Shown here one piece after another: positions 28,954 to 64,000 of a stretch of 64,000 bases of DNA. The position numbers and the translations under genes were made by a program. Below the pieces are notes generated by a model. That model had not been told where the DNA came from and did not search any database. It was given only the letters and a program-made list of their open reading frames with translations. The DNA lies in IMG/VR virus record IMGVR_UViG_3300010885_010784, positions 1 to 64,000 of that record. The stretch is one strand, 5' to 3'. This stretch comes from a virus. Each line of letters begins with the position of its first letter. The first letter of the stretch is position 1.

Positions 28954-29132
28954 TAATCTTCCTCCTTATCTTTTGGATTTCTGAGTGGGTAGGTAATCAT
29001 CCATAGAACTGATGTTCCCATGATTGCCCAACCTACTACTTCTTTTGCTGAACCCTCAAGTACCAGCCATGCAACAAACATACCAAGAAGTGTCCATGCC
29101 TGACCCAAAAGGTCATTTAAAAATTTCTTCAT
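28953..29132 (-). CDS. 59-residue two-helix membrane protein
   Basis: Found by reading the gap: MKKFLNDLLGQAWTLLGMFVAW... and VVGWAIMGTSVLWMITY form two hydrophobic segments. Overlaps the start of the holin and the stop of the PA14 gene (TAATG at both ends). A holin partner or antiholin is plausible. Confidence 0.65.
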   Translation of the reverse strand: MKKFLNDLLGQAWTLLGMFVAWLVLEGSAKEVVGWAIMGTSVLWMITYPLRNPKDKEED

Positions 29133-31081
29133 TAATCTTTCCTCCTTGTGCCTGATGTTCCACCTGAGCCACCTGCTGATGCAGATGCTGCTGCTGATGG
29201 TGCTGCTGCAGTAAGTGCTGCTCCTGTTGCTGCGTTGACTGCTGCTCCAACAGCAACAACTGCTGTCACAACAATCTTTTTAGATTCTTCTCTTACCTTT
29301 GGAGACATGTCAGAACCTACGTTACCCATAAAGTTAATTGCGTCTGCAAGGGCTACAACGGTTGCTCCAAGTACTGGCACTGCTGCTAATTCTTCGTTTA
29401 CTTCAATGTCGTCTGCTTGGGCTGCAACGAATAGGGCATCAAGAGCCTCTTCGTATTCTGGGGAGCCTTGCTCTGAATTTTCCAGGATTTCATTTGCTAC
29501 AGATATAAGTTCTGTTACTTGCTCTTCTGAAAGGGATTGTGGGTCTACCGTCGCAACATTTACTGGTAACTCAGGTTCACTGGGTTCGGGGGACACTGGC
29601 GGCTCTGGTTCTGGTAGCGGTTCTGGGATAATTTCTGTTGGCTTTTCAATAGGTTTCGGGGTCTCTTCAGGCGTAGGTGTTGGCTCGGTAAAAGGTGGAA
29701 TGGCTTGTAGTTCTTGTTGACGGACAATCAATTCCTCCTGTTTATTTGTTACATCCAGGGATGCTACTTCAATTATACTTGCCTTTTCTGTCTGCGTAAC
29801 TACCGATGTATTATAGTCTCTCTTAGCATCTGTCTGGTTACTTGTTGCTACCGATAAGTTTTGTTCTGCTGTAGAGACCTCAGCATTTGCCTGTATAATT
29901 GCTGGCAATAGTTCTGGGTTTTTAATCAATGGTGCTTCGGCATCCTCGTCTGGGACTAGCACAATAATTTCTTCTTCTCTAAATCTAAGTTCATCTCTAA
30001 ATAAAGTAATCTCGTCATAGACAATAACCTCGTCGTACACAATCTCTTCTGTGTAATAAGTTACTTCCTGATACTTTACAACTGGCTGATAAATTGTTTC
30101 TGTTACTGTTCGTTCTCCAAACCAAGTTGCAGGAACTATTGTCATGCTACCGCCAGCAACCTGTGACCAAAGTTGAACCCATGCTCCGCCACCATTCTCA
30201 TAGTAATACAAAGTAGTTGGGTATAGGATACCTGCTCTAATCCACATAGGCTGAGAGGTTGTTCCTCCACCACCCTTATCTCTCCAGTCATTAATAAGAG
30301 ACATACCAGCAATAGTTAGTTTGACACCATCATCTCCTGGTGCATAGAAACTATACCAGTTGTCTTCTGGAACCATGATGTTTCCCTCAAACTTAACAAG
30401 AACATCTTCAGCCTTTCCAGAGTTTAGAACTAGACCACTAAACCATTGGAAGTCAATGTTGGGTACGTTCATGCTGGCAAGTGGTGTTTCTGATTCGGTT
30501 GGTATTGGTGGGGCATTGTTGTATCCTTGTCTATTGTAGGATGTTGCTGTAAGTCCACCTGGAACTACCGTTGTAACTTCAACTGGTTCATAATCTAAAT
30601 AAGGCTGCATCTCTGTGTGCGGAACTAAAATTGTTCTTGGAACTAATTCTGTTCTTGGAACTAACTGGGTGTATGGGACCTGAACTGTATATGGTACTTG
30701 AATAGTTTCTACCTGTTCTTTAGTAGGTCTCACCCAGTCAGCATCTGGAATTAGTTTTGTGTTGTATTCTGTCTGAGCCAATTCTAGGCTTGCTTGTGCT
30801 TTGGTTAAAAGTAATTCTTTACTCTGAACATCTATAATTTTATTATCTAGAATTGTTTTGTTTGACTCTACCGTGGCATCTATGATAGCCTTGTTATTTA
30901 CGGCTGTCTGGTATGCTTCTTGAGCAACCACCAGAGCACTCTGGGCAGCACTAATCTTAGCCTCTGCTTCTGCAATAATCGCATTGTATTCATCCCTGGT
31001 TTGTGCAAGGGCTGGCGATGTAAAAAGTAAGCAAGAAAAGGCTAGGAATATGGCTAATATGAATCTAGGGGTTTTATTAAT
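29132..31081 (-). CDS. Secreted PA14-domain protein, probable ATT start
   Basis: No ATG gives a signal peptide. Reading upstream in frame to an ATT at 31081 yields NKTPRFILAIFLAFSCLLFTSPALA|Q, a textbook Sec signal with an ALA cleavage site, behind GAGGAG and a leader hairpin. An in-frame TAA lies just before the ATT. The mature part has a coiled-coil N-terminus, VPYT/VPRT repeats (VPYTVQVPYT then VPRTELVPRT), a PA14 domain (DNWYSFYAPGDDGVKLTIAG...YYYENGGGAW) and a Pro/Glu then Ala/Gly-rich C-terminus. 649 residues. It probably coats the host surface or binds glycans. Confidence 0.75.
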   Translation of the reverse strand: MNKTPRFILAIFLAFSCLLFTSPALAQTRDEYNAIIAEAEAKISAAQSALVVAQEAYQTAVNNKAIIDATVESNKTILDNKIIDVQSKELLLTKAQASLELAQTEYNTKLIPDADWVRPTKEQVETIQVPYTVQVPYTQLVPRTELVPRTILVPHTEMQPYLDYEPVEVTTVVPGGLTATSYNRQGYNNAPPIPTESETPLASMNVPNIDFQWFSGLVLNSGKAEDVLVKFEGNIMVPEDNWYSFYAPGDDGVKLTIAGMSLINDWRDKGGGGTTSQPMWIRAGILYPTTLYYYENGGGAWVQLWSQVAGGSMTIVPATWFGERTVTETIYQPVVKYQEVTYYTEEIVYDEVIVYDEITLFRDELRFREEEIIVLVPDEDAEAPLIKNPELLPAIIQANAEVSTAEQNLSVATSNQTDAKRDYNTSVVTQTEKASIIEVASLDVTNKQEELIVRQQELQAIPPFTEPTPTPEETPKPIEKPTEIIPEPLPEPEPPVSPEPSEPELPVNVATVDPQSLSEEQVTELISVANEILENSEQGSPEYEEALDALFVAAQADDIEVNEELAAVPVLGATVVALADAINFMGNVGSDMSPKVREESKKIVVTAVVAVGAAVNAATGAALTAAAPSAAASASAGGSGGTSGTRRKD

Positions 31082-31125: not shown

Positions 31126-32916
31126 TTATATTACGTTAATGTTAAACTGTTTAAAGTACGATTCCAGGTCTTTATCTGCTGGTTTGTTACGCTGAATAAT
31201 GCTACGCTTATCAAAGTCGTGCATTTCTTCTGTTGGCTTTCTGTCACGGAACGTGTGAATCTCTACCATCTGGTTTAGGTCTCTAGGTGTGTGAGAGATA
31301 GCACCAAAGATAGCACCGCATACAGCGTCTGCAAGGTCCTTGGAGGACTTTCTAGGGTGGTCTACACGATTACCCTTCATAATCTTCAACTCAGTTAGTT
31401 CTTCAAACAGCAAGTCAATGGCTGGCAAGGCTAGTCGCTCTTCATAAACAAGCATAGCCATATCCTCATAGTGCTTCTTAGCAACAGAAACAGTCTCAGT
31501 CTTTATACCAACAGACTTCAGTTCATTCTGGATATCAAACGACTGCCAGCGGTCAAAGGAAACCATTCCAATATCAAAGCCTAGTCTGCGTAGGTTCTGA
31601 ATCCACTGCTTTACTTCTGAAAGATTAACAGGACCTTCAATCTTTGGCTCCCAGTATACGACTGCATCTACTACTACGATAGGCATTACTTGTGCGTAGT
31701 CCTTAACTACCTGGACATTTACCCACTTCTCAACGTGAGCAATGGCAACAGCACACTTGTCGTGTCGCTGTGCAAGGTCAGCATGAACAAAGTATTTTTT
31801 GTCTGGGTCAGGCTTAAATGAATCCATAAAACTTTTGTTAGTGTCAATAGGATTTACGATTGTCATACAAGCACGAATCTTTTCTTGCTGCTTGAAGAAT
31901 GCATCGGACATGTAGGTTGGCACACACGCAAAACGTTGCATGGCATCACCGAGGTCTGTGTAGAATGCTAACTTAAAATCGTCAATCTTACGAGTAGGAT
32001 TTACAACCCAGGTTGGTCTCTTGATAGCAAACATTCCTGGAAACTTGTAGGATAGAATATTGTCTTCATCCCACTCAATCTCAAGGGTGTTTCCTTCTGC
32101 GTCTTCTGGCAAGTCTTCATTCATAATAAACTTGTGATGCTTTGTGATAACTTCCTTTTCAGCAATCACGGCATCGTATCTCTGCGAGATAAAGTCTCCT
32201 GGGTAACGAGGGAAAGATAGCAGTGCTACTTTGCCTAAATCTGGAAAGCGAGAGTCTACGGAAGCACGGAAGGCTTTGTAGATATTGTCAGCAGTCTTGC
32301 CTTGGTCATTACCTGTGTTTACTTCTTGTGCGAAACCAGAAATCTCGTCCAGTACCGCTAGGATAAGGTTAAGACCTTCGTGAGACTCACGCTCAGAGTG
32401 ACCAGAGTAAACGGTAATGGCTTGGTCAAACTCAATGCTGTCTGCTTTGGCGTAGAACTTTCCAGCGAACCAAGGTGAGCGTTCAATCTTATTCTTGAAG
32501 CCCTTGAAGAAAACGTTCTTAGCCTGTTGTGCGTTAATAGCAATGTTAATAATATCAATAGCGTCACCAGTAGGCTTACCAAAATAACGAGCAGGGTCTT
32601 TAAGACAAAGTAACTTATAAACGATATAGCAACAGGCAACTGTAGAAACAAAGTCCTTACCAGAACCCTTGCCTAGTTGTAGGATAACTTCATTCTTAGT
32701 ATACTTCTTGTAGTATCTGCGACCTTCTGTCTCCCCCAGGATTTCAATAACTTCTTCTAGTTTGTAGATTTGGCTCATAGCCTCTACAATGTCGTACTGA
32801 ATTTGTGATAGTGGTGGTTGCTGAAGATAATCTTCACCTTCCACAAATGTTTTAACGTCTACTGGATTTTCAGCAAAGACATTACTTTTCAGTACTTCAA
32901 AAAACTCATTGAACAT
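31126..32916 (-). CDS. terL: Terminase large subunit
   Basis: 596 residues. The ATPase has Walker A GKGSGKD (residues about 82-88) and Walker B LILAVLDE; the RNase H-like nuclease has FVHADLAQRHDKCAVAIAH and later VSFDRWQS and KDLADAVCGA with acidic residues. It packages DNA into heads. ATG 32916 is chosen over a TTG two codons upstream. Overlaps terS by 11 bases. Confidence 0.95.
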   Translation of the reverse strand: MFNEFFEVLKSNVFAENPVDVKTFVEGEDYLQQPPLSQIQYDIVEAMSQIYKLEEVIEILGETEGRRYYKKYTKNEVILQLGKGSGKDFVSTVACCYIVYKLLCLKDPARYFGKPTGDAIDIINIAINAQQAKNVFFKGFKNKIERSPWFAGKFYAKADSIEFDQAITVYSGHSERESHEGLNLILAVLDEISGFAQEVNTGNDQGKTADNIYKAFRASVDSRFPDLGKVALLSFPRYPGDFISQRYDAVIAEKEVITKHHKFIMNEDLPEDAEGNTLEIEWDEDNILSYKFPGMFAIKRPTWVVNPTRKIDDFKLAFYTDLGDAMQRFACVPTYMSDAFFKQQEKIRACMTIVNPIDTNKSFMDSFKPDPDKKYFVHADLAQRHDKCAVAIAHVEKWVNVQVVKDYAQVMPIVVVDAVVYWEPKIEGPVNLSEVKQWIQNLRRLGFDIGMVSFDRWQSFDIQNELKSVGIKTETVSVAKKHYEDMAMLVYEERLALPAIDLLFEELTELKIMKGNRVDHPRKSSKDLADAVCGAIFGAISHTPRDLNQMVEIHTFRDRKPTEEMHDFDKRSIIQRNKPADKDLESYFKQFNINVI

Positions 32917-33439
32917 TGACAATAGTTATTACTTCCTGCTCCCTAGATACCTGAGAAAGCCTACGCATAATCTCGTCTCGTACCTGCGGATACTCGCTTG
33001 CAATATCTCTAAGAATACCAACAAGGATATCCTGCTTACGTTCAATCTCTAGCATTTCTTCTGCAAGTTCTTTGTTCTCAAGTAGACCAGCCTTTTGTAG
33101 CATGTCTATACGAGTCTTCTCTAGGTCCATCACAAGTTTAATACCTGCAGTCTTAGCACCCAGATTTGCAATTGTAGTTGCATCATCAATGACTTCGTAT
33201 GCCTTGGCAATAAGTCTGCTGTAGTGTGTGTCTGCTCCGACCAAGGCTTCTTTAGCCCTAGCACGGATAGCAGCATTATCGGAAGCCATTACACGCCATT
33301 GGTTGATGTGTGCTACAACCTTTTGACGTGGCAGTGCAAGTTCTTTAGAGATTTGGGTAGGCTCTTCGCCCTGGAGATACTTCTCCACAACCTTGTTCAT
33401 CTCGTCAAGATGCTCTACTGTTAATTCTTCAATCGACAA
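32906..33439 (-). CDS. terS: Terminase small subunit-like protein
   Basis: 177 residues. An N-terminal HTH is visible (EPTQISKELALPRQKVVAHINQW), followed by a long coiled-coil region (residues 60-130) for oligomerisation, typical of TerS. Located directly upstream of terL. The TTG at 33439 is a tentative start; the ATG at 33400 (MNKVVEKY) is the alternative. Confidence 0.75.
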   Translation of the reverse strand: MSIEELTVEHLDEMNKVVEKYLQGEEPTQISKELALPRQKVVAHINQWRVMASDNAAIRARAKEALVGADTHYSRLIAKAYEVIDDATTIANLGAKTAGIKLVMDLEKTRIDMLQKAGLLENKELAEEMLEIERKQDILVGILRDIASEYPQVRDEIMRRLSQVSREQEVITIVNVQ

Positions 33440-54307: not shown

Positions 54308-54915
54308 TATACCTCTTCCAGCGTAACAGAAATATTCCACAAATCGTGGTTAGCCCCACCACGCTTTACTACTGTGTAATCAAAACTAGAAATAAACATT
54401 TCAATTACCTCGTTGTATTCAGCAAGGTGTGCATATTGACCAGACTCAGCAAAGTTACCCTTTTTATCATACGCTAAAAAGACATAAAACGAGCCTGTGT
54501 GGTTTTGATACCAGTCAAGTAGTTCATTGCCACCAGCACCCCCATCAACTGTATACCTAGTTCCTACTCCTGTTACTGCACCTGTAGTTGTGTTAAACTG
54601 TGGGTCTAGACTAAACGCTCTAGATGGAAGCATGTCCCAAGAAGTACTGATAGTCATTTTATCAGCAACGTGGTATGAACGCATACGACCATTAATCATA
54701 CGCTCTCGTTTTTCAATACGTTCTGGTTTGAATGAAATATCTTTTCTGTTGTGGTCAGATAGAACTATAAAGTCGTCTCCTGCAGTAACAGCATTAACCT
54801 CGTAGCCATCTGGGACTAGAAATCCACCAGAAGTAATTGGAGGTAGGTCTGACCACATCATTGCCTGTGGTCTTCTATATGTCTTCCTACCAGCGAGGTA
54901 TGTACTTGTAGCCAT
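54307..54915 (-). CDS. Distal tail protein-like (Dit)
   Basis: 202 residues; SGGFLVPDGYEVNAVTAGDDFIVLSDHNRKDISF and the HLAEYNEVIEMFISSFDYTVVKRGGANHDLW region fit the gene order TMP-Dit-Tal of actinophage siphoviruses. Overlaps by one base at both ends. Family not formally assigned. Confidence 0.7.
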   Translation of the reverse strand: MATSTYLAGRKTYRRPQAMMWSDLPPITSGGFLVPDGYEVNAVTAGDDFIVLSDHNRKDISFKPERIEKRERMINGRMRSYHVADKMTISTSWDMLPSRAFSLDPQFNTTTGAVTGVGTRYTVDGGAGGNELLDWYQNHTGSFYVFLAYDKKGNFAESGQYAHLAEYNEVIEMFISSFDYTVVKRGGANHDLWNISVTLEEV

Positions 54916-57900
54916 TAAATAGCACTGCTCCTAATTCGTCTTGAGTCAATACGCTTAATCTCTCTTAGCACTGAATCTGCAATATCGCTGGCATCTGAAG
55001 AGTTAGCATTGACTGTAATACTATAATTATACACTGATTCTCCACCTCGTGCTCCATTATTCATGGACTGTAGTTTGCCAGCACCAATTGAATCTACTGC
55101 TGACTTTCTCATAACAAATTCTCCTGGGGTAAGCATAGCAGGAATAGTGTCTGTTCCAAGTGCATACTTGCTCTTTGCAATGTGCATACCATTTTGAGCA
55201 TAAACCATACCACCTTGAGCAAAACGTTTTCCAACGTAAAACTCTGTCATTTCTTGGGTGTAGCCTTTTTGAGCCAAAGCCTGGTCAACCGCAGAGATGT
55301 TTCTTGCAATTCCCTGAACGTTTGCTATAGCAGCAGCAACAGGTGCGTACAACGCATTATAAATTTTAATTGAACCCTTATCGTCAGTTGCCTTACTTCC
55401 TATCCATCTGTCTCCGTCTTTTGACAATTGAGATTTTGCCGAAGACTCAAAAGTTGTTTTTGCAGTTGCTAGTTCTGCGTTTGCTGTTTTCTTTTGTTCA
55501 TTAAAAGTTTTAAGTAGTTCTAGTGCTTGTTGAACTTCCACTGGCTGTTTATTAAAGGCTGTTGTCTTTTTTTCTTCAGCAAGTGCGTCAAAATTTGTAA
55601 CAAGTGCTTCTGCAGCCTTGTACTCTTCTACATATGCATCGTATGCAGCCAAGTCCTTTGGTGCTATTGAACTTCTTTGTTTAAGGGTGTATCCTGTGCC
55701 ACCTCTACCTGCATACGCTTGAGTAAATTTTCCAGAAGAACCTGCCTTAAGTGTGCTAAAAGCATTTTTTGCAGCAATTTTATCTTTTGCTATATTTCCA
55801 GCAGTTAGGCTGGTCAAACTTTTTATTGCTACACCTAATGTTTTTCCTGTTCCTCCGCCGCCGAACTTTCCAATTTTTGCCAATCCAGCAACGGCTTGTC
55901 CAGCCGTGACAGGTGCACCAGTGTCTTTAGTGTCTTTAGTATCCTTGGTGTCCTTAGTATCCTTTACTCCAGTGCCAGAAACACTTGGATTATAAGGCTT
56001 TACAAGAGCAAGAGCCTTGCCATCTTTAAGGATACTAGCCATGTGCTTTGCAGACTTAAGTGCATTTTGCTGAATATTTGCTTGATATTGTTCTTCTTTT
56101 AGTTTGTACCCTGCAATCTTTTCAGCGTTGCTTTCAAGAATTGCTTCTAGTTTTGTACGGTCAGTAAGAACACCGTTAATTCTAACCTCAACACCCTCAA
56201 GTTCAATCTTTCTAGCATTTTCAATACTTGTCTTAGCATCATCTAGTGCTTGCTTCTGGTCGTTTTGTTTAGCCTGAAGTGCAGCCTTAGCAGCAGCAGC
56301 GATGTCACCCTTTGACAAAGCATCTGCAAGTGTCATTGTGTCTTGTTGCTGTTGGTTATTCTTTTCTCGAATCTTTCCAATTTCATCAAGTGCTTTTGCA
56401 CGAGCATTATACTTATCGTTAATCTTTTTTTCTTTAGTAGCAATAACATCAAGACCAGCCTGATACAATTCGTTATCTTTTGCTAGTCTTTCTGCAGGAG
56501 TTGCAAGAACATAGGTAAGACCAATTTCGCTGGCATCCTTAATTTCTTTCAACTTCTTTAGAAGTGCTCCAGCATTAGCCCTTAACTTACCAGTTTTCTT
56601 GTCAATAATTCTATTCTGCTCTTCTTCAGTGCCGTTCATAAAGTCTCTAATGATTTCTGCATCTGCACCCTGGGCTTTCATCAATACTGCGATACCGCCC
56701 ATTTGCTTGACCGCTGCACTTCCATATTTCATAATTGCCTTGTATGATGCATCCCAACCAACGGTAAGTTTTTGCTGCCAGTTGTTTGCTTCACGAAGCA
56801 TTTTTACATATGGGTCAAGGATTGATGGGTCTGGACCTTGCTTTGTTGATGTATCCTGTGCAGAACCTGGACCAGTAGTGTTGTCAACGCCAAACGAGGT
56901 GACAGTTCTATCTGCTTGGTATGCCGCATAATCAGCAAATGTAAGAGTCTTATTGCCCTGCTCGCTTTGCCAGACTTTAAATGCAGCCATCATATCCTTG
57001 TCGCCCTTCATGGCAAGAATTTGTTGAAGTTCCGTCATAAACACTACTTTGTTTGCTTTATTGTATTTATTAAAGGTTGCAAATTTAGACTTTAGTGCTG
57101 CAATACCGTCTTTACTTCCTTCTAAGAATTTGCTGGCTATGCCAATGGTGATGGTTTTTTCTTTCTTAAGGTTTTCAATATTTTCATTAAACTTAATCAT
57201 CTTGTCTTCATTTTGAATTGAGAAGTTTATGATTGCTTCACTTGCCTTACCTTTGAAAACTCCTCTTGTTTTATTTGCAAGTTCTAGAGCATTGTTAGTT
57301 TGCATTAGTTTTGCAGGGTCCATTGTTGAGGCTTCAGTCAAATATTTTTCTTTAAGTTTTGTATCTGTAATATTGGATGAAAGACCTAGTGCACGGTTGG
57401 CTTCTACTGGACTATTTGTAAGTAGATTGGCAAGGTTTGCCATTCCTTCTGCAGAGCCACCAAATACCTGTGCAGCGGTGTTTGCCTGATTAATTCCAAG
57501 TTGTTTAGTTGCTATTGCAGACTTAACAAAGTTTTCTTGTCCTTGCGTTCCAGCAGAATTGTCAATTGCCTCTCTTGCTAGTTTGGCTTGAGTCTCTAAT
57601 CCAGTTCCCTTATACGCTTCCTCAATAGACTTATTTAGTTCATCACTAGTTGCTACTTGAGTATTAAATAGAATTCCCCAACCAGTGCTTTGGTCTTCAA
57701 GAGTTTTCAATAGTTCTTGATTAGTCTTTTTGTTTGACTCTAGCAGTTCACCTTGGTCAATTAGGTACTGATTCTCAAGTTTTGTAGCCTCAGCAATATC
57801 TCCAGCAGCACGAGCACTAGCAATTCTTTTCTCATAAGATAACTGCAATGAGTCAACCATCTGTTGCTCAACCTCTAGAGTATTTTGAATAGATTCAGAA

Positions 57901-60900
57901 AGTGCTGCAGCCTGTTTTGTAATTTGTTCTTGGTACATGACACCTGCAATAACCATTCCAGTAAGAGCACCAGCAATAGTTCCAATAATTGGAACTGCGG
58001 AACCTGCTGCTGCAAGACCTCCAATAATTGTTCCAGTTGATGCAATTGCAAGTCCAGCGTTGGCGGCTAAAGTTGCAAGTCCTAGAACTGCACCACCAGC
58101 GGCTAGTCCTGCACCTGCACCAGCAACGCCACCTACAACCTCACGACCAGCCTGAGTACCATTGTTTGCTTCTGCTCCAGTCTGAGCCATTGCAGCGGCA
58201 TTGCCTCTAACTTGTTCCATAGAAGATTCAATAATTTTCATTCTAACTTCTAGTGGGTCCTTGGCTAGGTTTTCACCATTAGGACCCATAATGTCTGTAA
58301 GGCTTGCAGATACATTAAGACCAAAGTTCATATCTCCAAGTTCTGTACCCAAGTTTGCTGCAATGCTTCTTGCTTGAGCAGGGTTCATTACACCAGTAGC
58401 AATTGCTTCTGACAACTGGTTAGTGATTAGTTTTTGTGCGTTCTCAATTCCGCCACCCTTAGAAATTTCAGTATCAACAGACTTAACGAGTTCTTTACCT
58501 GCGTCTGTCTTCATGTAAGACTCACCGAATGTTGTTTTACCCTGAACAATATTAAAGAACTGACCACCGCTTGTTTCACGGCGTTTGTCCATAGCCTCAG
58601 TACCAGTTACCTTCTTAGAGAACTCTGCAAACTTTGCCATTGCTTCATTGCTAGTGCCCATCTTCTTTTCTAGGTCAGATGATTCCTTGGCTAGTTTATT
58701 AAGGTGTTCATTGATTTGGAATGCTGCAACACCAATAGCAGCAAATCCTGCTACCACCAATCCAGCAGGACCAGGAATAAGAGACATTGCCGTAGTGGCT
58801 GCACCGATTGGACCCATTGCTGCTTGAGCAGCCTCGCCAACCTTTCCTGGAATAGTTGACGCTAGACCAGCGACAGTTGTAAGGGCATACATTGCAGACT
58901 GTACTTTACCAGTTACTTCATTTCTAGTAAACGCACTAGAAACTTTTCCAGCAAACCCCTTGCCCTCAAGTCGTTTGTCAAACTTAGCCTTTTCTTCCTT
59001 TGACATTTGGTCGTAACCAGCATTAACTCTCTTTTGGTTGTCTGCAAGTCTCTTGTTTTCTATTTCTTCTTGTTTTGCTCTTTCTTGTTCTTGTTTAATC
59101 TGTTTGCGAATTTCTTTATCAGTTAACTTAGTTTCTTTAGTAACCTCAACAACACCATCTGCTGCTTTACTAACTTTTTCTGCTGCTGTAGTTTGCAACT
59201 GTGATAGTCTTTGTGCTTCTGCATCTTTCTTTTTACTTAAATCATCCATTACCTTGACTGGAAGTGGGCGACCTTCGTTGTAGGAATCTCCAATATAGCC
59301 ACCACCATCGTAACCAATAATTCCACCATTAGCGTATCCTGGCAAATTACCAGAAATCATTCCTTGGATTAGTCCACGGTGTTTACCTGCTTGTTTAGCA
59401 GGAATTACAGCCTCACCTGGAGAAAGCATAGCAGGAACTACATCGCCAGCACCCTTTGGTCCTGGAACTGAGAATACTCCACCAGCATATCCAGGAATGA
59501 ATCCACCCTTAGCAAGTTTCATCATTAGAACTTCAATAATTTTTGGTATACCGCCAGAAATGCTAGTAATCTTACCCTTTAGTCCTGGAGGAAGTACACC
59601 CTCTGACTGGAATGGATATTCTGCACCAGCCTTTTCTCCAAATGCTTGTTTTTTGTAATCTGGATTGTATGTATTGTGATTCATAATTCCTGGCATATCG
59701 TAGCCAGCAACAAGTTTTAGAATAGTATTAACAGCACGTTCTCTATTTCCAGTGTTAAGTTTTCCTGCTGCTGTCATTCCAATTGCTTGCAGTTCAGACT
59801 GTGATGCAATGGAAGAGAATCTGTTACCAAGTTCAATGATATCGCCAACCTTCTTTGTGGCTAGTTCTTCATTTTGTCTAATGGTAGGTACACGGAACAT
59901 TTGGTTGCCTTTACCAATTGTAGATTTTGCAACCAAACTTGCCAGAGCATCTCCATGCTGAATTTGAGCAAGAGGTGAATTTTGAATAAATGCAACTTGT
60001 GCATCCTTTTCTGCCTGAGTTGGCATAGCAGAGAATCCTTGTGGAAGAACTCCTGCTGTTCCATCGGCAAGTTTGAGTGGATTGTAAGCAGGAATACCAA
60101 GAAGACTAATAGCACCACGAGTAGCATCCATATCATCATAGAACTCTTCGATGTCGTAATACTTCATAAACTTAGAAGTCTTGTCATACTTCATTTGTTC
60201 TGGTTTGCGGTAATCCTTATCTCTTCTTGAAATAAGTTTTACACCGTTCATGTCAATGCCAAGTTTTTTCAAAGTTTCTAGAGTGTGTGGGTCATATGAT
60301 TCTGGACGAGCGGTCATAAGAAGAATCTTGTTGCCACGAGCCTGAGCAGCCTTTAGTCTTTCAATCGCTGCTGGGATGCCCTTCGGGTCTTTAGCAGCCT
60401 CTTTGTACCACTTCTTCTTTTGTCCTTCTGGAAGTTTGTCATTCTCTGCTTTATGCTTTTCCATGAATGATGATAGGTCAAGAAGTGTGTCGTCGATATC
60501 AAATACAGATGCTTTTGGCTTTACCCCTGTTTTGACAAATCCTCCGTCTGCCATTTTTTTAATCATTCCATATTTAATTAATGACTGCATATCTGTAATA
60601 GAAACGTCTGGACCAAATCCAGTCTTTGGACTATCGTATGAAAGGAATTTACTTTGGCTGTCGCTCATAAATCCTGCTTCAAGACTATTTCCACGAAGTT
60701 TTAGTCCTGCTGGTATTGGTGGCATTGCGCCAGAAGCAATCCAAGAATCACGGAGAGCAATCTGTTGTTTACGCAAAGCGTCGCCACCATTCTTAGAACT
60801 TCCTTCAAGATTAAATCTTGCACTTCTTAATTTTGCATTTGCTCCTGTTGGAGAAAATAGCATTCCATCTTTATGGAACTGAAGTTGTCCATTATTAAAT

Positions 60901-63900
60901 TGATTTCTAAGAACATCATTATCTTTAAGTGCTTTTCCTGATGCATCAAACTCTTCTGGAACAACCTGTCTTAGAGTTCCTACAAGTCCTGCCCTTTCTA
61001 GATATTTATTTGCAAGTTCCCCAATTGGACCTTGTGTTTTTGCATATTCTTGAAGTGCTTGGGTTGCACCCTTGGCAAGCGCAGGGTCATTGACACGACC
61101 CATCTGTGCGTTAGCAATGGCACTTAGTCCAATCTTGTCTTCAATAGTTTGTGACGCACCAAGGTATGAGGACGCTGGCGACTTAAGACCTAAAGTCTTT
61201 TTCAGAGTTGCGTTCATCTTACCCTTTAGGGCATTGTAAACAGCCTTAAAGGGACCAACTTCCATACCTGCAGGACCAGTTTTTCCACCAACACGAAGTT
61301 GCTGATTTAATTTATCTGGCAAACTCATTGTTAGATTGCCAAGAATTTTAAAGTTCTTGAAAGCATCTGCACCAGCACCAAATACTCCAAGTTGTGTTTC
61401 TACATCTTTGTAGTTAAGTTCATTCTGTGCATGGCTTTCTTGAAGGACCATCTCCCACTTAGAGCCATCATAGTCGTATATTGCTTTACTGCCCTTTACG
61501 ACACCCACAATTGGGTCATGCTCTGCACCCTTAACTTCATCTTCGCCTTGGTTAAATTTCTTTACCGTTGGAACAACTGCTGAGTGCATTGCTTGGTACT
61601 TTGACCAATCAACATTGCCACCTTTTTGAAGTCTTTCAATCATTTGCTGATATGATGCTGCTTCTTCAGCAGACATTGGACCAAAGTTTGCAACAGTTTC
61701 TTTTAGTCTTGGTAGAACACTAGAAATTTCAGCCTTCATTGCTGCATCATATTCAGCAGGTGTAAGGCTTGCTGCTATGTCCTTTGTTGCTTCTGCAAAG
61801 AATCTCTTAGCACCCCCCTTTACACCAAGTAGGTTAATAATGGCTTGTTCTTCCATAGAGTTAATGGCACTACCAAGAGCACGTTTACCAGATGCCCTGC
61901 CAAATACACCAGCAGTTCCAACATCAGCAAGGATGTCTCCACCGAGATTTCCAACCCCAAGGTCTTTGTCGCCACGAAGAAGTGATGCAACTAACTGCTT
62001 GAAGTATTGTTCTTTTGTAAATGTTTCTGGAATATTTGCAATTCTGTCGTCAAGTGCTGATTCAAGAACAATGAACTTGCGTTGATTTTCTGGGTCTGTT
62101 GGGTCCATCATTACACGGATTTCTTGCTTAGGTGCCACAAGACCGTGTGCGTCACGAGCAATTGTTGTTCCACGGACTTCTGCTAGTGCAGATGTAAGGT
62201 CAATCTGTGGCTTAACAAATACTCTTGTACCATCTGGCTTTTCGTAAATACCACCAACATTAAATGCAGGGAATGAGTGACCAGTAGTTGGAGAAATTTG
62301 TGTACCAAAATCTGTAGGCGGCACATTTCCATAAGGACCAGCCTTAACTTCATCGCTAATATCTTTAAGTTGTAATCCAGTTCTCAAAAGACCATCTGTT
62401 TGCTTTTGTGTAAGTGGTCCATAAACGCTTTGACGCATACCTGCACCAGTAGTACCATTTTCAAATCCAGGAAGGTTTCCAGCAACCATACCAGCAATTA
62501 CAGGTGCATATTTTCTTGCATGTTTTGCAGGAATAACCGCTTCTCCTGGAGATAGAAGAGCAGGAACAATGTCTCCTGCACCAGCAGGACCAGGAACCAT
62601 TGACACACCATTAGCATACTTCTTTGGCGTTATGTTGGGATTGCCTACAGGGACTCCAGGAACACCAGAGAATGCTTGCTGTGCTTGAATAGCATTTCTA
62701 TATGCATTTGTCAGGTCATTCAGTGCACCTGCTTCAGATGTAAATGTTTGACGAAGTTTGGCGTGAGCCTGGTCAAGTGATGCTGCGATTGCTGCACCCT
62801 TTAGTTGCTCGCTTGTCATGTATCCTGTTTGCTCACCAAGGATATCTGATGGTCTTGTGGTCTTGTTTATAAAGCCCTTCATGTTTGTAAAGAGTTTCAT
62901 AATGTTTGCTACACCGTTGGCAATAAGACCAAAGGTCATTAGAAGTAGTGGACCAATACCAGCAACAGCGGTTACAAGAATAGTAATAAAGGATTTTGTG
63001 CCTTCACTTAGGTTATTAAAACCATCAAGGATTTTACTGACGAATTCAATGATTGGGGTTACAGCCTTCAGGAATGCTTCACCAACTGGTGCGAGTTTAG
63101 CCTGAATGTCTTGAATAGATTTTTGGAACTTGTACATTGGAGAGTCTGAAATCTTTTTCATTTCTCGTTCGGATAGTACAGATAGTTCTTCTGCAGTTTG
63201 TGTTGCAAGTCCTGCCACCTGCTGTGCTTGGCTACCCTCTTTAATTACGTTTTGAAACAATGTAGAAATACGAGAAAATTGAAACTTACCAAATAGTTGT
63301 TCGATAGCACGAGCACGGTTTAGTGGGTCAAGAGTGTCAAAAGCCTTTGCCATGTCAATAACAGTTTGCTTTACATTACCCTTGTTTCCTTCTACAATTC
63401 CCTTAACATTAATATTAAAACCAGCAAGGAACTCAGATGCTTTCTTGCTTGGGTTAATCATAGACGCTAGACCAGACTTAAGTGCGTTAGCACCTTCGGA
63501 TGCGTTAATTCCACCTTCCTTCATTGCTGTTAGGAAGAATGTTAGGTCTTCTACGTTACCACCAAGTTGCTTGACAACAGGTGCTGCCTTTGGAATAGCA
63601 ATGGTAAGGTCTTCAATAGATGTTACAGTTTGGTTTTCTACTGCGTTTAGAAAGTCAATCTTTCCAGATAGTTGGTCAGCAGATGTTCCAAATGCATTGG
63701 TTAATGAGATGGTTGTCTCTAGTGCTTGATTCTGGTCTACCTGACCTAGTACTGCCAACTTGTTTGCCTGAGCAATTTGAGAAAGTAAGTCTGCTCCAGT
63801 CTTACCCATAGCAGCAGCCTTGGCAGCCATATCCATAGTATCTGACACAGCAACGCCATATTTAGTAAATTCGTTTGCAAGTTGACGAACAGAGCCAACC

Positions 63901-64000
63901 ATTTTTTCTGTTTCGTCTGCTGTTGTGTTTATGTCTCCATAAACACGCCTGAAGGAAATCGAAGCCTTTTCAATTTCCATATATGCTTTAGCAGCAGCAG
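54915..64000 (-). CDS. Tape-measure protein (5' partial at right edge)
   Basis: More than 3,025 residues visible; the open frame continues past the window (AAAKAY before the first Met at 63980). Contains TP901/PhageMin-type start (VRQLANEFTKYGVAV), long coiled coils, several hydrophobic stretches, three VPGP.GAGD..PA.LSPGEAVIPAK repeats, a kinase-like domain (about 61600-62270), a HAD-phosphatase domain (about 60060-60530), and an alanine/glycine-rich membrane segment (about 57940-58150). At about 0.15 nm per residue the tail would be near 450 nm. Confidence 0.93.
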   Translation of the reverse strand, partial: AAAKAYMEIEKASISFRRVYGDINTTADETEKMVGSVRQLANEFTKYGVAVSDTMDMAAKAAAMGKTGADLLSQIAQANKLAVLGQVDQNQALETTISLTNAFGTSADQLSGKIDFLNAVENQTVTSIEDLTIAIPKAAPVVKQLGGNVEDLTFFLTAMKEGGINASEGANALKSGLASMINPSKKASEFLAGFNINVKGIVEGNKGNVKQTVIDMAKAFDTLDPLNRARAIEQLFGKFQFSRISTLFQNVIKEGSQAQQVAGLATQTAEELSVLSEREMKKISDSPMYKFQKSIQDIQAKLAPVGEAFLKAVTPIIEFVSKILDGFNNLSEGTKSFITILVTAVAGIGPLLLMTFGLIANGVANIMKLFTNMKGFINKTTRPSDILGEQTGYMTSEQLKGAAIAASLDQAHAKLRQTFTSEAGALNDLTNAYRNAIQAQQAFSGVPGVPVGNPNITPKKYANGVSMVPGPAGAGDIVPALLSPGEAVIPAKHARKYAPVIAGMVAGNLPGFENGTTGAGMRQSVYGPLTQKQTDGLLRTGLQLKDISDEVKAGPYGNVPPTDFGTQISPTTGHSFPAFNVGGIYEKPDGTRVFVKPQIDLTSALAEVRGTTIARDAHGLVAPKQEIRVMMDPTDPENQRKFIVLESALDDRIANIPETFTKEQYFKQLVASLLRGDKDLGVGNLGGDILADVGTAGVFGRASGKRALGSAINSMEEQAIINLLGVKGGAKRFFAEATKDIAASLTPAEYDAAMKAEISSVLPRLKETVANFGPMSAEEAASYQQMIERLQKGGNVDWSKYQAMHSAVVPTVKKFNQGEDEVKGAEHDPIVGVVKGSKAIYDYDGSKWEMVLQESHAQNELNYKDVETQLGVFGAGADAFKNFKILGNLTMSLPDKLNQQLRVGGKTGPAGMEVGPFKAVYNALKGKMNATLKKTLGLKSPASSYLGASQTIEDKIGLSAIANAQMGRVNDPALAKGATQALQEYAKTQGPIGELANKYLERAGLVGTLRQVVPEEFDASGKALKDNDVLRNQFNNGQLQFHKDGMLFSPTGANAKLRSARFNLEGSSKNGGDALRKQQIALRDSWIASGAMPPIPAGLKLRGNSLEAGFMSDSQSKFLSYDSPKTGFGPDVSITDMQSLIKYGMIKKMADGGFVKTGVKPKASVFDIDDTLLDLSSFMEKHKAENDKLPEGQKKKWYKEAAKDPKGIPAAIERLKAAQARGNKILLMTARPESYDPHTLETLKKLGIDMNGVKLISRRDKDYRKPEQMKYDKTSKFMKYYDIEEFYDDMDATRGAISLLGIPAYNPLKLADGTAGVLPQGFSAMPTQAEKDAQVAFIQNSPLAQIQHGDALASLVAKSTIGKGNQMFRVPTIRQNEELATKKVGDIIELGNRFSSIASQSELQAIGMTAAGKLNTGNRERAVNTILKLVAGYDMPGIMNHNTYNPDYKKQAFGEKAGAEYPFQSEGVLPPGLKGKITSISGGIPKIIEVLMMKLAKGGFIPGYAGGVFSVPGPKGAGDVVPAMLSPGEAVIPAKQAGKHRGLIQGMISGNLPGYANGGIIGYDGGGYIGDSYNEGRPLPVKVMDDLSKKKDAEAQRLSQLQTTAAEKVSKAADGVVEVTKETKLTDKEIRKQIKQEQERAKQEEIENKRLADNQKRVNAGYDQMSKEEKAKFDKRLEGKGFAGKVSSAFTRNEVTGKVQSAMYALTTVAGLASTIPGKVGEAAQAAMGPIGAATTAMSLIPGPAGLVVAGFAAIGVAAFQINEHLNKLAKESSDLEKKMGTSNEAMAKFAEFSKKVTGTEAMDKRRETSGGQFFNIVQGKTTFGESYMKTDAGKELVKSVDTEISKGGGIENAQKLITNQLSEAIATGVMNPAQARSIAANLGTELGDMNFGLNVSASLTDIMGPNGENLAKDPLEVRMKIIESSMEQVRGNAAAMAQTGAEANNGTQAGREVVGGVAGAGAGLAAGGAVLGLATLAANAGLAIASTGTIIGGLAAAGSAVPIIGTIAGALTGMVIAGVMYQEQITKQAAALSESIQNTLEVEQQMVDSLQLSYEKRIASARAAGDIAEATKLENQYLIDQGELLESNKKTNQELLKTLEDQSTGWGILFNTQVATSDELNKSIEEAYKGTGLETQAKLAREAIDNSAGTQGQENFVKSAIATKQLGINQANTAAQVFGGSAEGMANLANLLTNSPVEANRALGLSSNITDTKLKEKYLTEASTMDPAKLMQTNNALELANKTRGVFKGKASEAIINFSIQNEDKMIKFNENIENLKKEKTITIGIASKFLEGSKDGIAALKSKFATFNKYNKANKVVFMTELQQILAMKGDKDMMAAFKVWQSEQGNKTLTFADYAAYQADRTVTSFGVDNTTGPGSAQDTSTKQGPDPSILDPYVKMLREANNWQQKLTVGWDASYKAIMKYGSAAVKQMGGIAVLMKAQGADAEIIRDFMNGTEEEQNRIIDKKTGKLRANAGALLKKLKEIKDASEIGLTYVLATPAERLAKDNELYQAGLDVIATKEKKINDKYNARAKALDEIGKIREKNNQQQQDTMTLADALSKGDIAAAAKAALQAKQNDQKQALDDAKTSIENARKIELEGVEVRINGVLTDRTKLEAILESNAEKIAGYKLKEEQYQANIQQNALKSAKHMASILKDGKALALVKPYNPSVSGTGVKDTKDTKDTKDTKDTGAPVTAGQAVAGLAKIGKFGGGGTGKTLGVAIKSLTSLTAGNIAKDKIAAKNAFSTLKAGSSGKFTQAYAGRGGTGYTLKQRSSIAPKDLAAYDAYVEEYKAAEALVTNFDALAEEKKTTAFNKQPVEVQQALELLKTFNEQKKTANAELATAKTTFESSAKSQLSKDGDRWIGSKATDDKGSIKIYNALYAPVAAAIANVQGIARNISAVDQALAQKGYTQEMTEFYVGKRFAQGGMVYAQNGMHIAKSKYALGTDTIPAMLTPGEFVMRKSAVDSIGAGKLQSMNNGARGGESVYNYSITVNANSSDASDIADSVLREIKRIDSRRIRSSAI
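60060..60530 (-). other. HAD-phosphatase domain inside the tape measure
   Basis: SVFDIDDTLLDLSSF (motif I), KILLMTARPES (motif II Thr), a central Lys (KLISRRDKDYRK) and YDDMDATRG (motif IV) are present in order and at HAD spacing. All catalytic residues look intact. Confidence 0.75.
61600..62270 (-). other. Kinase-like domain inside the tape measure
   Basis: GGIYEKPDGTRVFVKP (Lys in a strand), an RKFIVLESAL hinge-like segment, QYFKQLVASLLRGDKDLGVGN (D...N loop) and LADVGTAGVF (DxG) follow the order of an atypical protein/lipid kinase fold. Identification is by motif only. Confidence 0.55.

What the first reader, a model, noticed from the sequence alone, without database searches (positions are those of the whole stretch)
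61600..62270. Kinase-like domain in the same tape measure
A Lys strand, D...N loop and DxG are in correct order. A kinase plus phosphatase pair inside one tape measure would be unprecedented to my knowledge, and could modify host targets at entry.
Basis: inference. Interest (0 to 1): 0.75.

Follow-up and report, generated by a model that had tools for sequence, protein, structure and literature searches.

The report
Kinase cassette in phage tape measure
A freshwater phage carries a protein-kinase-like enzyme domain, next to a phosphatase-like domain and a probable ADP-ribosyltransferase, as swappable cargo inside the protein that sets its tail length, which suggests the tail may deliver enzymes into the host along with the DNA.

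Summary
The tape measure protein (TMP; 3233 aa, minus strand 64616-54915, running past the window end) contains a 269-aa domain at 62381-61575. AlphaFold2 models it at pLDDT 90.4 and pTM 0.90, with an N-lobe, helix C and catalytic loop laid out as in HipA/PI3K-type kinases. The top PDB matches are kinases or the LepB effector (LepB, CtkA, HipA, then protein kinases), though TM-scores are only 0.2-0.4.

In 61 relatives (down to about 51% identity) the only invariant lysine of 17 is the predicted catalytic one. The only three invariant aspartates of 17 are in the catalytic loop and DxG. dN/dS is 0.07-0.21.

A profile comparison links the N-lobe to known phage virion proteins (GodonK gp67, Onyinye gp16), themselves weakly related to HipA, PI3/4K and CtkA.

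The kinase is a discrete cassette after a 'VPGPxGAGDxVPAxLSPGEAVIP' linker. 33 of 68 related TMPs have it. One kinase-free TMP (L152) lacks exactly that stretch; others carry different cassettes at the same linker. The HAD phosphatase downstream is real (E 3e-16) but also resembles polynucleotide phosphatases; an ART-like domain follows.

Kinase activity, delivery into the host and targets are inferred, not shown.

The parts
54915..64000 (-). tape measure protein gene (whole gene runs to position 64616 of the 70,080-base parent record; 3233 aa)
   Evidence: open frame; PF10145 PhageMin_Tail E 1.1e-26; phrog_10030 tape measure E 1.8e-81
62469..62627 (-). linker 1, 'VPGPAGAGDIVPALLSPGEAVIPAKHARKY...GNLPGF', TMP aa 664-716; marks the start of the cargo region
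   Evidence: linker profile hits at aa ~660-690 in nearly all related TMPs; 108-nt direct repeat 62511-62618 / 59382-59489, 71%
61575..62381 (-). kinase-like domain, TMP aa 746-1014
   Evidence: AlphaFold2 pLDDT 90.4, pTM 0.90; Foldseek PDB and BFVD matches; 61-sequence conservation; dN/dS 0.07-0.21
62211..62213 (-). K802, predicted beta-3 ATP-binding lysine; the only invariant Lys of 17
   Evidence: aligned with the Lys of the GodonK-type kinases by hhalign
62178..62180 (-). E813, predicted helix-C glutamate, invariant
61947..61976 (-). predicted catalytic loop R-G-D883-K-D885-L-G-V-G-N890; D883, D885 and N890 invariant
   Evidence: follows helix 123-136 in the model
61917..61925 (-). DxG metal-binding motif D898-V-G900, invariant, followed by 'AGVFxRASG'
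   Evidence: compare 'VDxGGSLxYRAQG' in GodonK-type kinases
60717..61454 (-). conserved domain of unknown function after the kinase ('QESHA...NLTMSLPDKLNQ...IED'), TMP aa ~1055-1300
   Evidence: also in L152, which lacks the kinase: L152 aa 722-964 matches TMP aa 1058-1299
60057..60524 (-). HAD phosphatase-like domain, TMP aa 1365-1520; motifs DIDDTLLD, MTARP, DD all present
   Evidence: PF03767 E 3.3e-16; phrog_415 polynucleotide kinase E 1.3e-14; motif conservation in 16 TMPs
59532..60002 (-). ADP-ribosyltransferase-like domain, TMP aa 1539-1695 (R, S-x-S and 'SEGVLPPG' motif pattern, by eye)
   Evidence: recurs in L006/L087 and, elsewhere in its TMP, in L018; no family-model hit, so tentative
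59337..59495 (-). linker 2, 'VPGPKGAGDVVPAMLSPGEAVIPAKQAGKH...GNLPGY', TMP aa 1708-1760; marks the end of the cargo region

Best explanation
The feature is a HipA/PI3K-type kinase domain carried as one cassette in a cargo region of a siphophage tape measure protein, bounded by repeated linkers. The TMP is read as a fixed N-part (about 665 aa), a variable cargo region, and a C-part (about 1500 aa). Most likely mechanism: the TMP, cargo included, fills the tail tube and is ejected ahead of or with the DNA. The kinase then folds or refolds in the bacterial cell, binds ATP through K802 and E813, and transfers phosphate using D885/N890 and D898, modifying a host protein or other host molecule early in infection. 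The HAD and ART-like domains would be further effectors delivered on the same chain. Shown here: the domain, its conservation, its modular presence or absence, and a kinase-like predicted fold. Inferred: catalysis, delivery, target.
For: Fold: pLDDT 90.4, pTM 0.90; top PDB matches are kinases or the LepB effector; BFVD E down to 8.9e-5; TMq up to 0.53 to ART-annotated and portal-fused phage proteins; PI3K/PI4K-annotated HSTV-2 protein. Active-site conservation. Purifying selection. Remote homology: hhalign to the GodonK/Onyinye kinase family, E 4.7e-5, score 39.4 against a maximum of 25.1 in 60 column-permuted controls, aligning the Lys and the helix-C Glu; that family's own weak hits are HipA_C, PI3_PI4_kinase and LepB_N in Pfam and CtkA in PDB sequences. 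Cassette nature: linkers at aa ~664 and ~1016 flank the kinase alone in about ten TMPs; 33 of 68 TMPs have it; kinase-free TMPs carry other cassettes at the same linker; in L152 window aa 3-721 and 1058-1299 align to 4-721 and 722-964, so exactly the kinase stretch is absent. Cargo apparently not part of the ruler: N-part SD 2 aa, cargo 680-1955 aa (CV 0.32), C-part CV 0.08; cultured relatives' TMPs are 2088-2380 aa against about 2189 aa for this TMP without its linker1-linker2 cargo.
Against: PDB Foldseek E-values are 2e-3 at best and whole-model TM-scores are at most 0.41; no Pfam, PHROG or PDB sequence family matches the domain itself. The profile match covers only beta-2/beta-3/helix C (55 columns); the catalytic-loop correspondence is by eye. 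The histidine usual in HipA/PI3K catalytic loops (DxHxxN) is absent, and the half after DxG ('SMEEQAIINLLGVKGGAK') is peculiar to this family. Delivery of the domain and its passage through a tail tube were not tested.
Confidence: 0.62

Rival explanations
1. The domain has a kinase fold but transfers something else (AMPylation, as in SelO) or phosphorylates a lipid or nucleotide rather than a protein.
For: Top matches include PI4-kinases (LepB, PI4KII-beta) as well as protein kinases; the catalytic loop lacks the usual His; the neighbouring HAD also looks like a polynucleotide phosphatase.
Against: K/E/D/N/DxG are all invariant, as in ordinary phosphotransferases; no SelO match was seen.
Confidence: 0.2
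2. The kinase acts in the producing cell or during assembly (for example phosphorylating tail proteins or the TMP itself), not in the newly infected host.
For: It is covalently part of a virion structural protein.
Against: Half of the related TMPs do without it, and its swapping with unrelated cassettes and co-occurrence with ART-like, GNAT-like and HAD domains fits effectors aimed at a host better than an assembly step.
Confidence: 0.12
3. The domain is a catalytically dead scaffold or spacer that merely lengthens the TMP.
For: It lies in the protein that sets tail length.
Against: Catalytic residues are the most conserved of their kind in 61 sequences; cargo length varies threefold while the flanking parts hardly vary.
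Confidence: 0.06
4. The effectors target eukaryotic grazers that eat infected bacteria ('Trojan horse'), as proposed for ART genes of freshwater phages (PMC6802176).
For: The proposal exists for ART-encoding freshwater phages; CtkA and LepB, among the top structural matches, act on eukaryotic cells (own knowledge).
Against: Fusion to the TMP points to delivery along the DNA entry route into bacteria.
Confidence: 0.05

Closest known systems
Phage virion kinase-ART proteins: Gordonia phage GodonK gp67, Mycobacterium phages Onyinye gp16 and prophiFSIL01-1 gp53 ('minor capsid and ADP-ribosyltransferase domain fusion')
   Same: Kinase-like domain in a large virion-region protein, often with an ART domain; shared beta-3 Lys, helix-C Glu, D...N loop and 'DxGxxxx[FY]xRAxG'
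   Different: Those lie beside the portal or head genes or elsewhere, not in the TMP; sequence similarity to our domain is detectable only by profile and only in the N-lobe
HipA / CtkA / LepB / PI4-kinase group of kinases
   Same: Best structural matches; K, E, D..N, DxG layout
   Different: No His in the catalytic loop, different C-lobe, no Pfam match, not stand-alone
Polyvalent proteins of phages and conjugative elements (PMC5512222)
   Same: Injected multidomain proteins with kinase, ART and GNAT domains
   Different: Its main text does not mention tape measure proteins; its kinases are a different group (C-terminal subdomain lost, insert between His and Asp)
Tape measure proteins with enzymatic domains (M23 peptidase in Streptomyces phages Muntaha and Circinus and Rhodococcus phage Trina; TM4 peptidoglycan hydrolase motif)
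   Same: Same TMP family by N-part, about 30% identity; an enzyme domain in the TMP
   Different: Cell-wall enzymes near the C-terminus that help entry; no kinase, HAD or ART found
TMP-related effectors of contractile injection systems (Sle1, Tme; PMC13277306)
   Same: The idea that TMP-like proteins are ejected effectors
   Different: Bacterial CIS, no kinase mentioned, different architecture

Membership tests
HipA/PI3K-type kinase superfamily | beta-3 Lys and helix-C Glu | tested here: met
   K802 and E813 invariant in 61/61, placed on strand 53-58 and helix 62-77 of the model
HipA/PI3K-type kinase superfamily | catalytic loop Asp...Asn and DxG metal site | tested here: met
   D885-x4-N890 and D898-x-G900 invariant in 61/61
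HipA/PI3K-type kinase superfamily | DxHxxN histidine in the catalytic loop | tested here: not met
   Position holds Gly or other residues; also absent in GodonK-type members
HipA/PI3K-type kinase superfamily | kinase fold in the predicted structure | tested here: inconclusive
   Confident model, matches are kinases, but TM at most 0.41 in PDB and 0.53 in BFVD
HipA/PI3K-type kinase superfamily | recognised by a curated family model (HipA_C, PI3_PI4_kinase) | tested here: not met
   None of 61 members
HipA/PI3K-type kinase superfamily | phosphotransfer activity | not testable with these tools
   needs enzymology
GodonK/Onyinye phage virion kinase family | profile-level sequence homology over the domain | tested here: inconclusive
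   hhalign E 4.7e-5, prob 68, 55 columns only
Siphophage tape measure protein | TMP core homology | tested here: met
   PF10145 E 1.1e-26; phrog_10030 E 1.8e-81; 30-34% identity to annotated TMPs
Polyvalent-protein kinases (PMC5512222) | loss of the C-terminal subdomain and insert between catalytic His and Asp | tested here: not met
   Helical C-terminal half present and conserved; no such His
HAD phosphatase (downstream domain) | DxDxT, Thr/Ser motif II, acidic motif IV | tested here: met
   DIDDT, MTARP and DD conserved in 16 TMPs; PF03767 E 3.3e-16
Injected phage effector (T4 Alt-like) | virion protein enters the host cell and modifies host protein | not testable with these tools
   needs virion and infection proteomics

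The most novel reading that the evidence does not exclude
In this family of phages (probably infecting freshwater actinobacteria) the tape measure protein doubles as a modular effector-delivery chain: linker-bounded, exchangeable enzyme cassettes (kinase, HAD phosphatase, ART-like, a second HipA-like kinase, GNAT) are threaded through the tail and released into the host before any phage gene is expressed, without counting towards tail length.
Probability: 0.45. Interest if true: 0.88.

Novelty: new variant of a known kind. Interest (0 to 1): 0.74.

Why it matters
Phage effectors known to enter with the DNA, such as T4 Alt, come from the head. A tail ruler that carries kinases and other modifying enzymes would be a second protein-delivery route, would explain why these TMPs exceed 3000 aa, and would give a large natural set of early-acting enzymes aimed at uncultured bacteria. 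It also raises a testable physical question: how a folded domain passes a siphophage tail tube. The linker repeats offer a search handle for more cargo.

Tried and rejected
Sequence searches of the domain against Pfam, PHROGs, PDB chains and 50,697 named phages found nothing. A scan of 84,980 bacterial/archaeal genomes found no relative. The second kinase-like cassette of L020 ('IGNDDGHTNNILF...NLDLG') was considered as a bridge to HipA, but almost only L020 itself carries it and it gave no Pfam or PDB hit. The first structure model, made with 22 sequences and too long a segment (pLDDT 67.8), was replaced by the 61-sequence model. A loose motif regex was rejected as evidence because shuffles match it more often than the real protein. 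Kinase-HAD co-occurrence (16/89 against 0/35) was not taken as proof of a functional pair because most loci were fetched through the kinase. Literature searches for a kinase in a TMP found none.

Full report
Observation. The window is bases 1-64000 of a 70,080-base virus record. The tape measure gene runs on the minus strand from 64616 to 54915 (3233 aa) and is cut by the window end; the rest was read from the parent record. Its N-terminal part matches PhageMin_Tail (E 1.1e-26) and TMP PHROGs (best E 1.8e-81).

Is it more than chance? A strict regular expression for the motif set matches the real TMP once and 1 of 300 shuffles; a loose one matches shuffles about 3.5 times each. The stronger evidence is conservation. 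Two scans of IMG/VR gave 61 distinct sequences, the others 51-84% identical to the window domain. In them 47 of 269 columns are invariant. Of 17 lysines only K802 is invariant; of 17 aspartates only D883, D885 and D898 are. dN/dS between pairs is 0.07-0.21.

Fold. With 61 sequences AlphaFold2 gives pLDDT 90.4 and pTM 0.90: three strands, helix C, two more strands, a helix and loop, then a helical half. Foldseek against the PDB ranks LepB, CtkA, HipA and many protein kinases. The E-values (2e-3 and weaker) and TM-scores (at most 0.41) are modest, so the fold is 'kinase-like', with an unusual second half. Against viral models the best hits are phage proteins annotated as ADP-ribosyltransferase (Onyinye, E 8.9e-5; an uncultured phage, TMq 0.53), a portal fusion, GodonK gp67 and the HSTV-2 'PI3K/PI4K' protein.

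Bridge by sequence. I fetched the Onyinye, GodonK and HSTV-2 records and 13 relatives of the first two. Their kinase regions read '[WY]YVK', 'E..A.KLY', 'DAWL.NWD....DN', 'VD.GGSL.YRAQG'; ours reads 'VFVK', 'AE.R.T.IAR', 'ASLLRGDKDL...N', 'ADVG.AGVF.RASG'. hhalign aligns beta-2 to helix C with E 4.7e-5, score 39.4 against at most 25.1 in 60 column-permuted controls. The bridging family has weak hits to HipA_C, PI3_PI4_kinase and LepB_N, and CtkA is its best PDB sequence match (E 0.096). These weak results agree with the independent fold matches.

Cassette architecture. A linker ('VPGPxGAGDxVPAxLSPGEAVIPAKxAxKYxxLIxGMIxxNIPG') lies at aa ~664 in nearly all related TMPs. In about ten, a second copy follows directly after the kinase at ~1016. 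Among 68 distinct TMPs fetched by their N-part alone, 33 have the kinase and 35 do not; several of the latter carry other 300-400 aa cassettes between the same linkers. In L152 (1845 aa) the match to the window TMP runs 3-721 to 4-721 and resumes 1058-1299 to 722-964, so exactly the kinase is missing. In 12 close relatives the N-part is 665 +/- 2 aa and the C-part 1501 +/- 116 aa, while the cargo ranges from 680 to 1955 aa (one of the twelve, L015, was cut at its N-terminus and its coordinates were offset to match). TMPs of cultured relatives (Streptomyces phages Muntaha and Circinus, Rhodococcus phage Trina) are 2088-2380 aa with a C-terminal M23 peptidase and no kinase. The window TMP without its linker-to-linker region is about 2189 aa.

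Neighbours in the cargo. The HAD domain is firm (E 3.3e-16) but also matches a polynucleotide-kinase PHROG. An ART-like stretch follows (60002-59532; motif by eye, no model hit). Other TMPs carry a GNAT-like domain (L050, E 0.0019, below the Pfam cut-off) and a second kinase-like cassette (L020). So the 'kinase plus phosphatase pair' is part of a larger, variable set.

Mechanism. Shown: a conserved, selected, modular, kinase-like domain inside a TMP. Inferred from the established role of TMPs (they fill the tail tube and are ejected at entry) and from head-injected ARTs such as T4 Alt: delivery into the bacterium and modification of host molecules. Not shown: catalysis, substrate, or passage of the domain through the tube. 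The host is probably an actinobacterium, because the nearest cultured TMPs belong mainly to Streptomyces and Gordonia phages; the freshwater setting is inferred from the metagenomic relatives and was not checked sample by sample.

Novelty. Enzyme domains in TMPs are known (M23 peptidase here), and kinase, ART and GNAT domains in injected phage proteins are known (PMC5512222). I found no report of a kinase in a TMP, within the limits of the held library. I therefore call it a new variant of a known kind.

Noticed in passing
59532-60002: ADP-ribosyltransferase-like stretch after the HAD domain ('MFRVPTIRQ...RFSSIASQ...SEGVLPPGLKGKI'); it recurs in L006/L087 and, elsewhere in its TMP, in L018.
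   Followed up: partly
L020:11966-12799: A second, canonical-looking HipA/PI3K-type kinase cassette ('KKYYVKNT', 'IGNDDGHTNNILF', 'FVNLDLG') in a TMP that already has the first kinase; nearly unique in IMG/VR.
   Followed up: partly
L050:4361-6484: GNAT-like acetyltransferase and another ART-like cassette in the cargo region of a related TMP.
   Followed up: partly
L097, L133, L157 and L158 TMPs, aa ~690-1060: Unidentified cassettes replacing the kinase between the same linkers, sharing a 'GGF..KDI..I....P...P.L...LR..GL' ending.
   Followed up: no
60717-61454: Conserved domain of unknown function between kinase and HAD; it remains in L152, which lacks the kinase.
   Followed up: no
L176 (Actinomycetia phage DSL-LC01, 52800-62669 of OQ999401): A protein of about 3289 aa of a lake actinophage with a GodonK-type kinase domain and possible ART, not recognisable as a TMP.
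   Followed up: partly
31126-32922 and 29132-30931: Two adjacent ~600-aa ORFs; the first matches terminase large subunit only over parts (E 8e-12), the second matches nothing in PHROGs.
   Followed up: no
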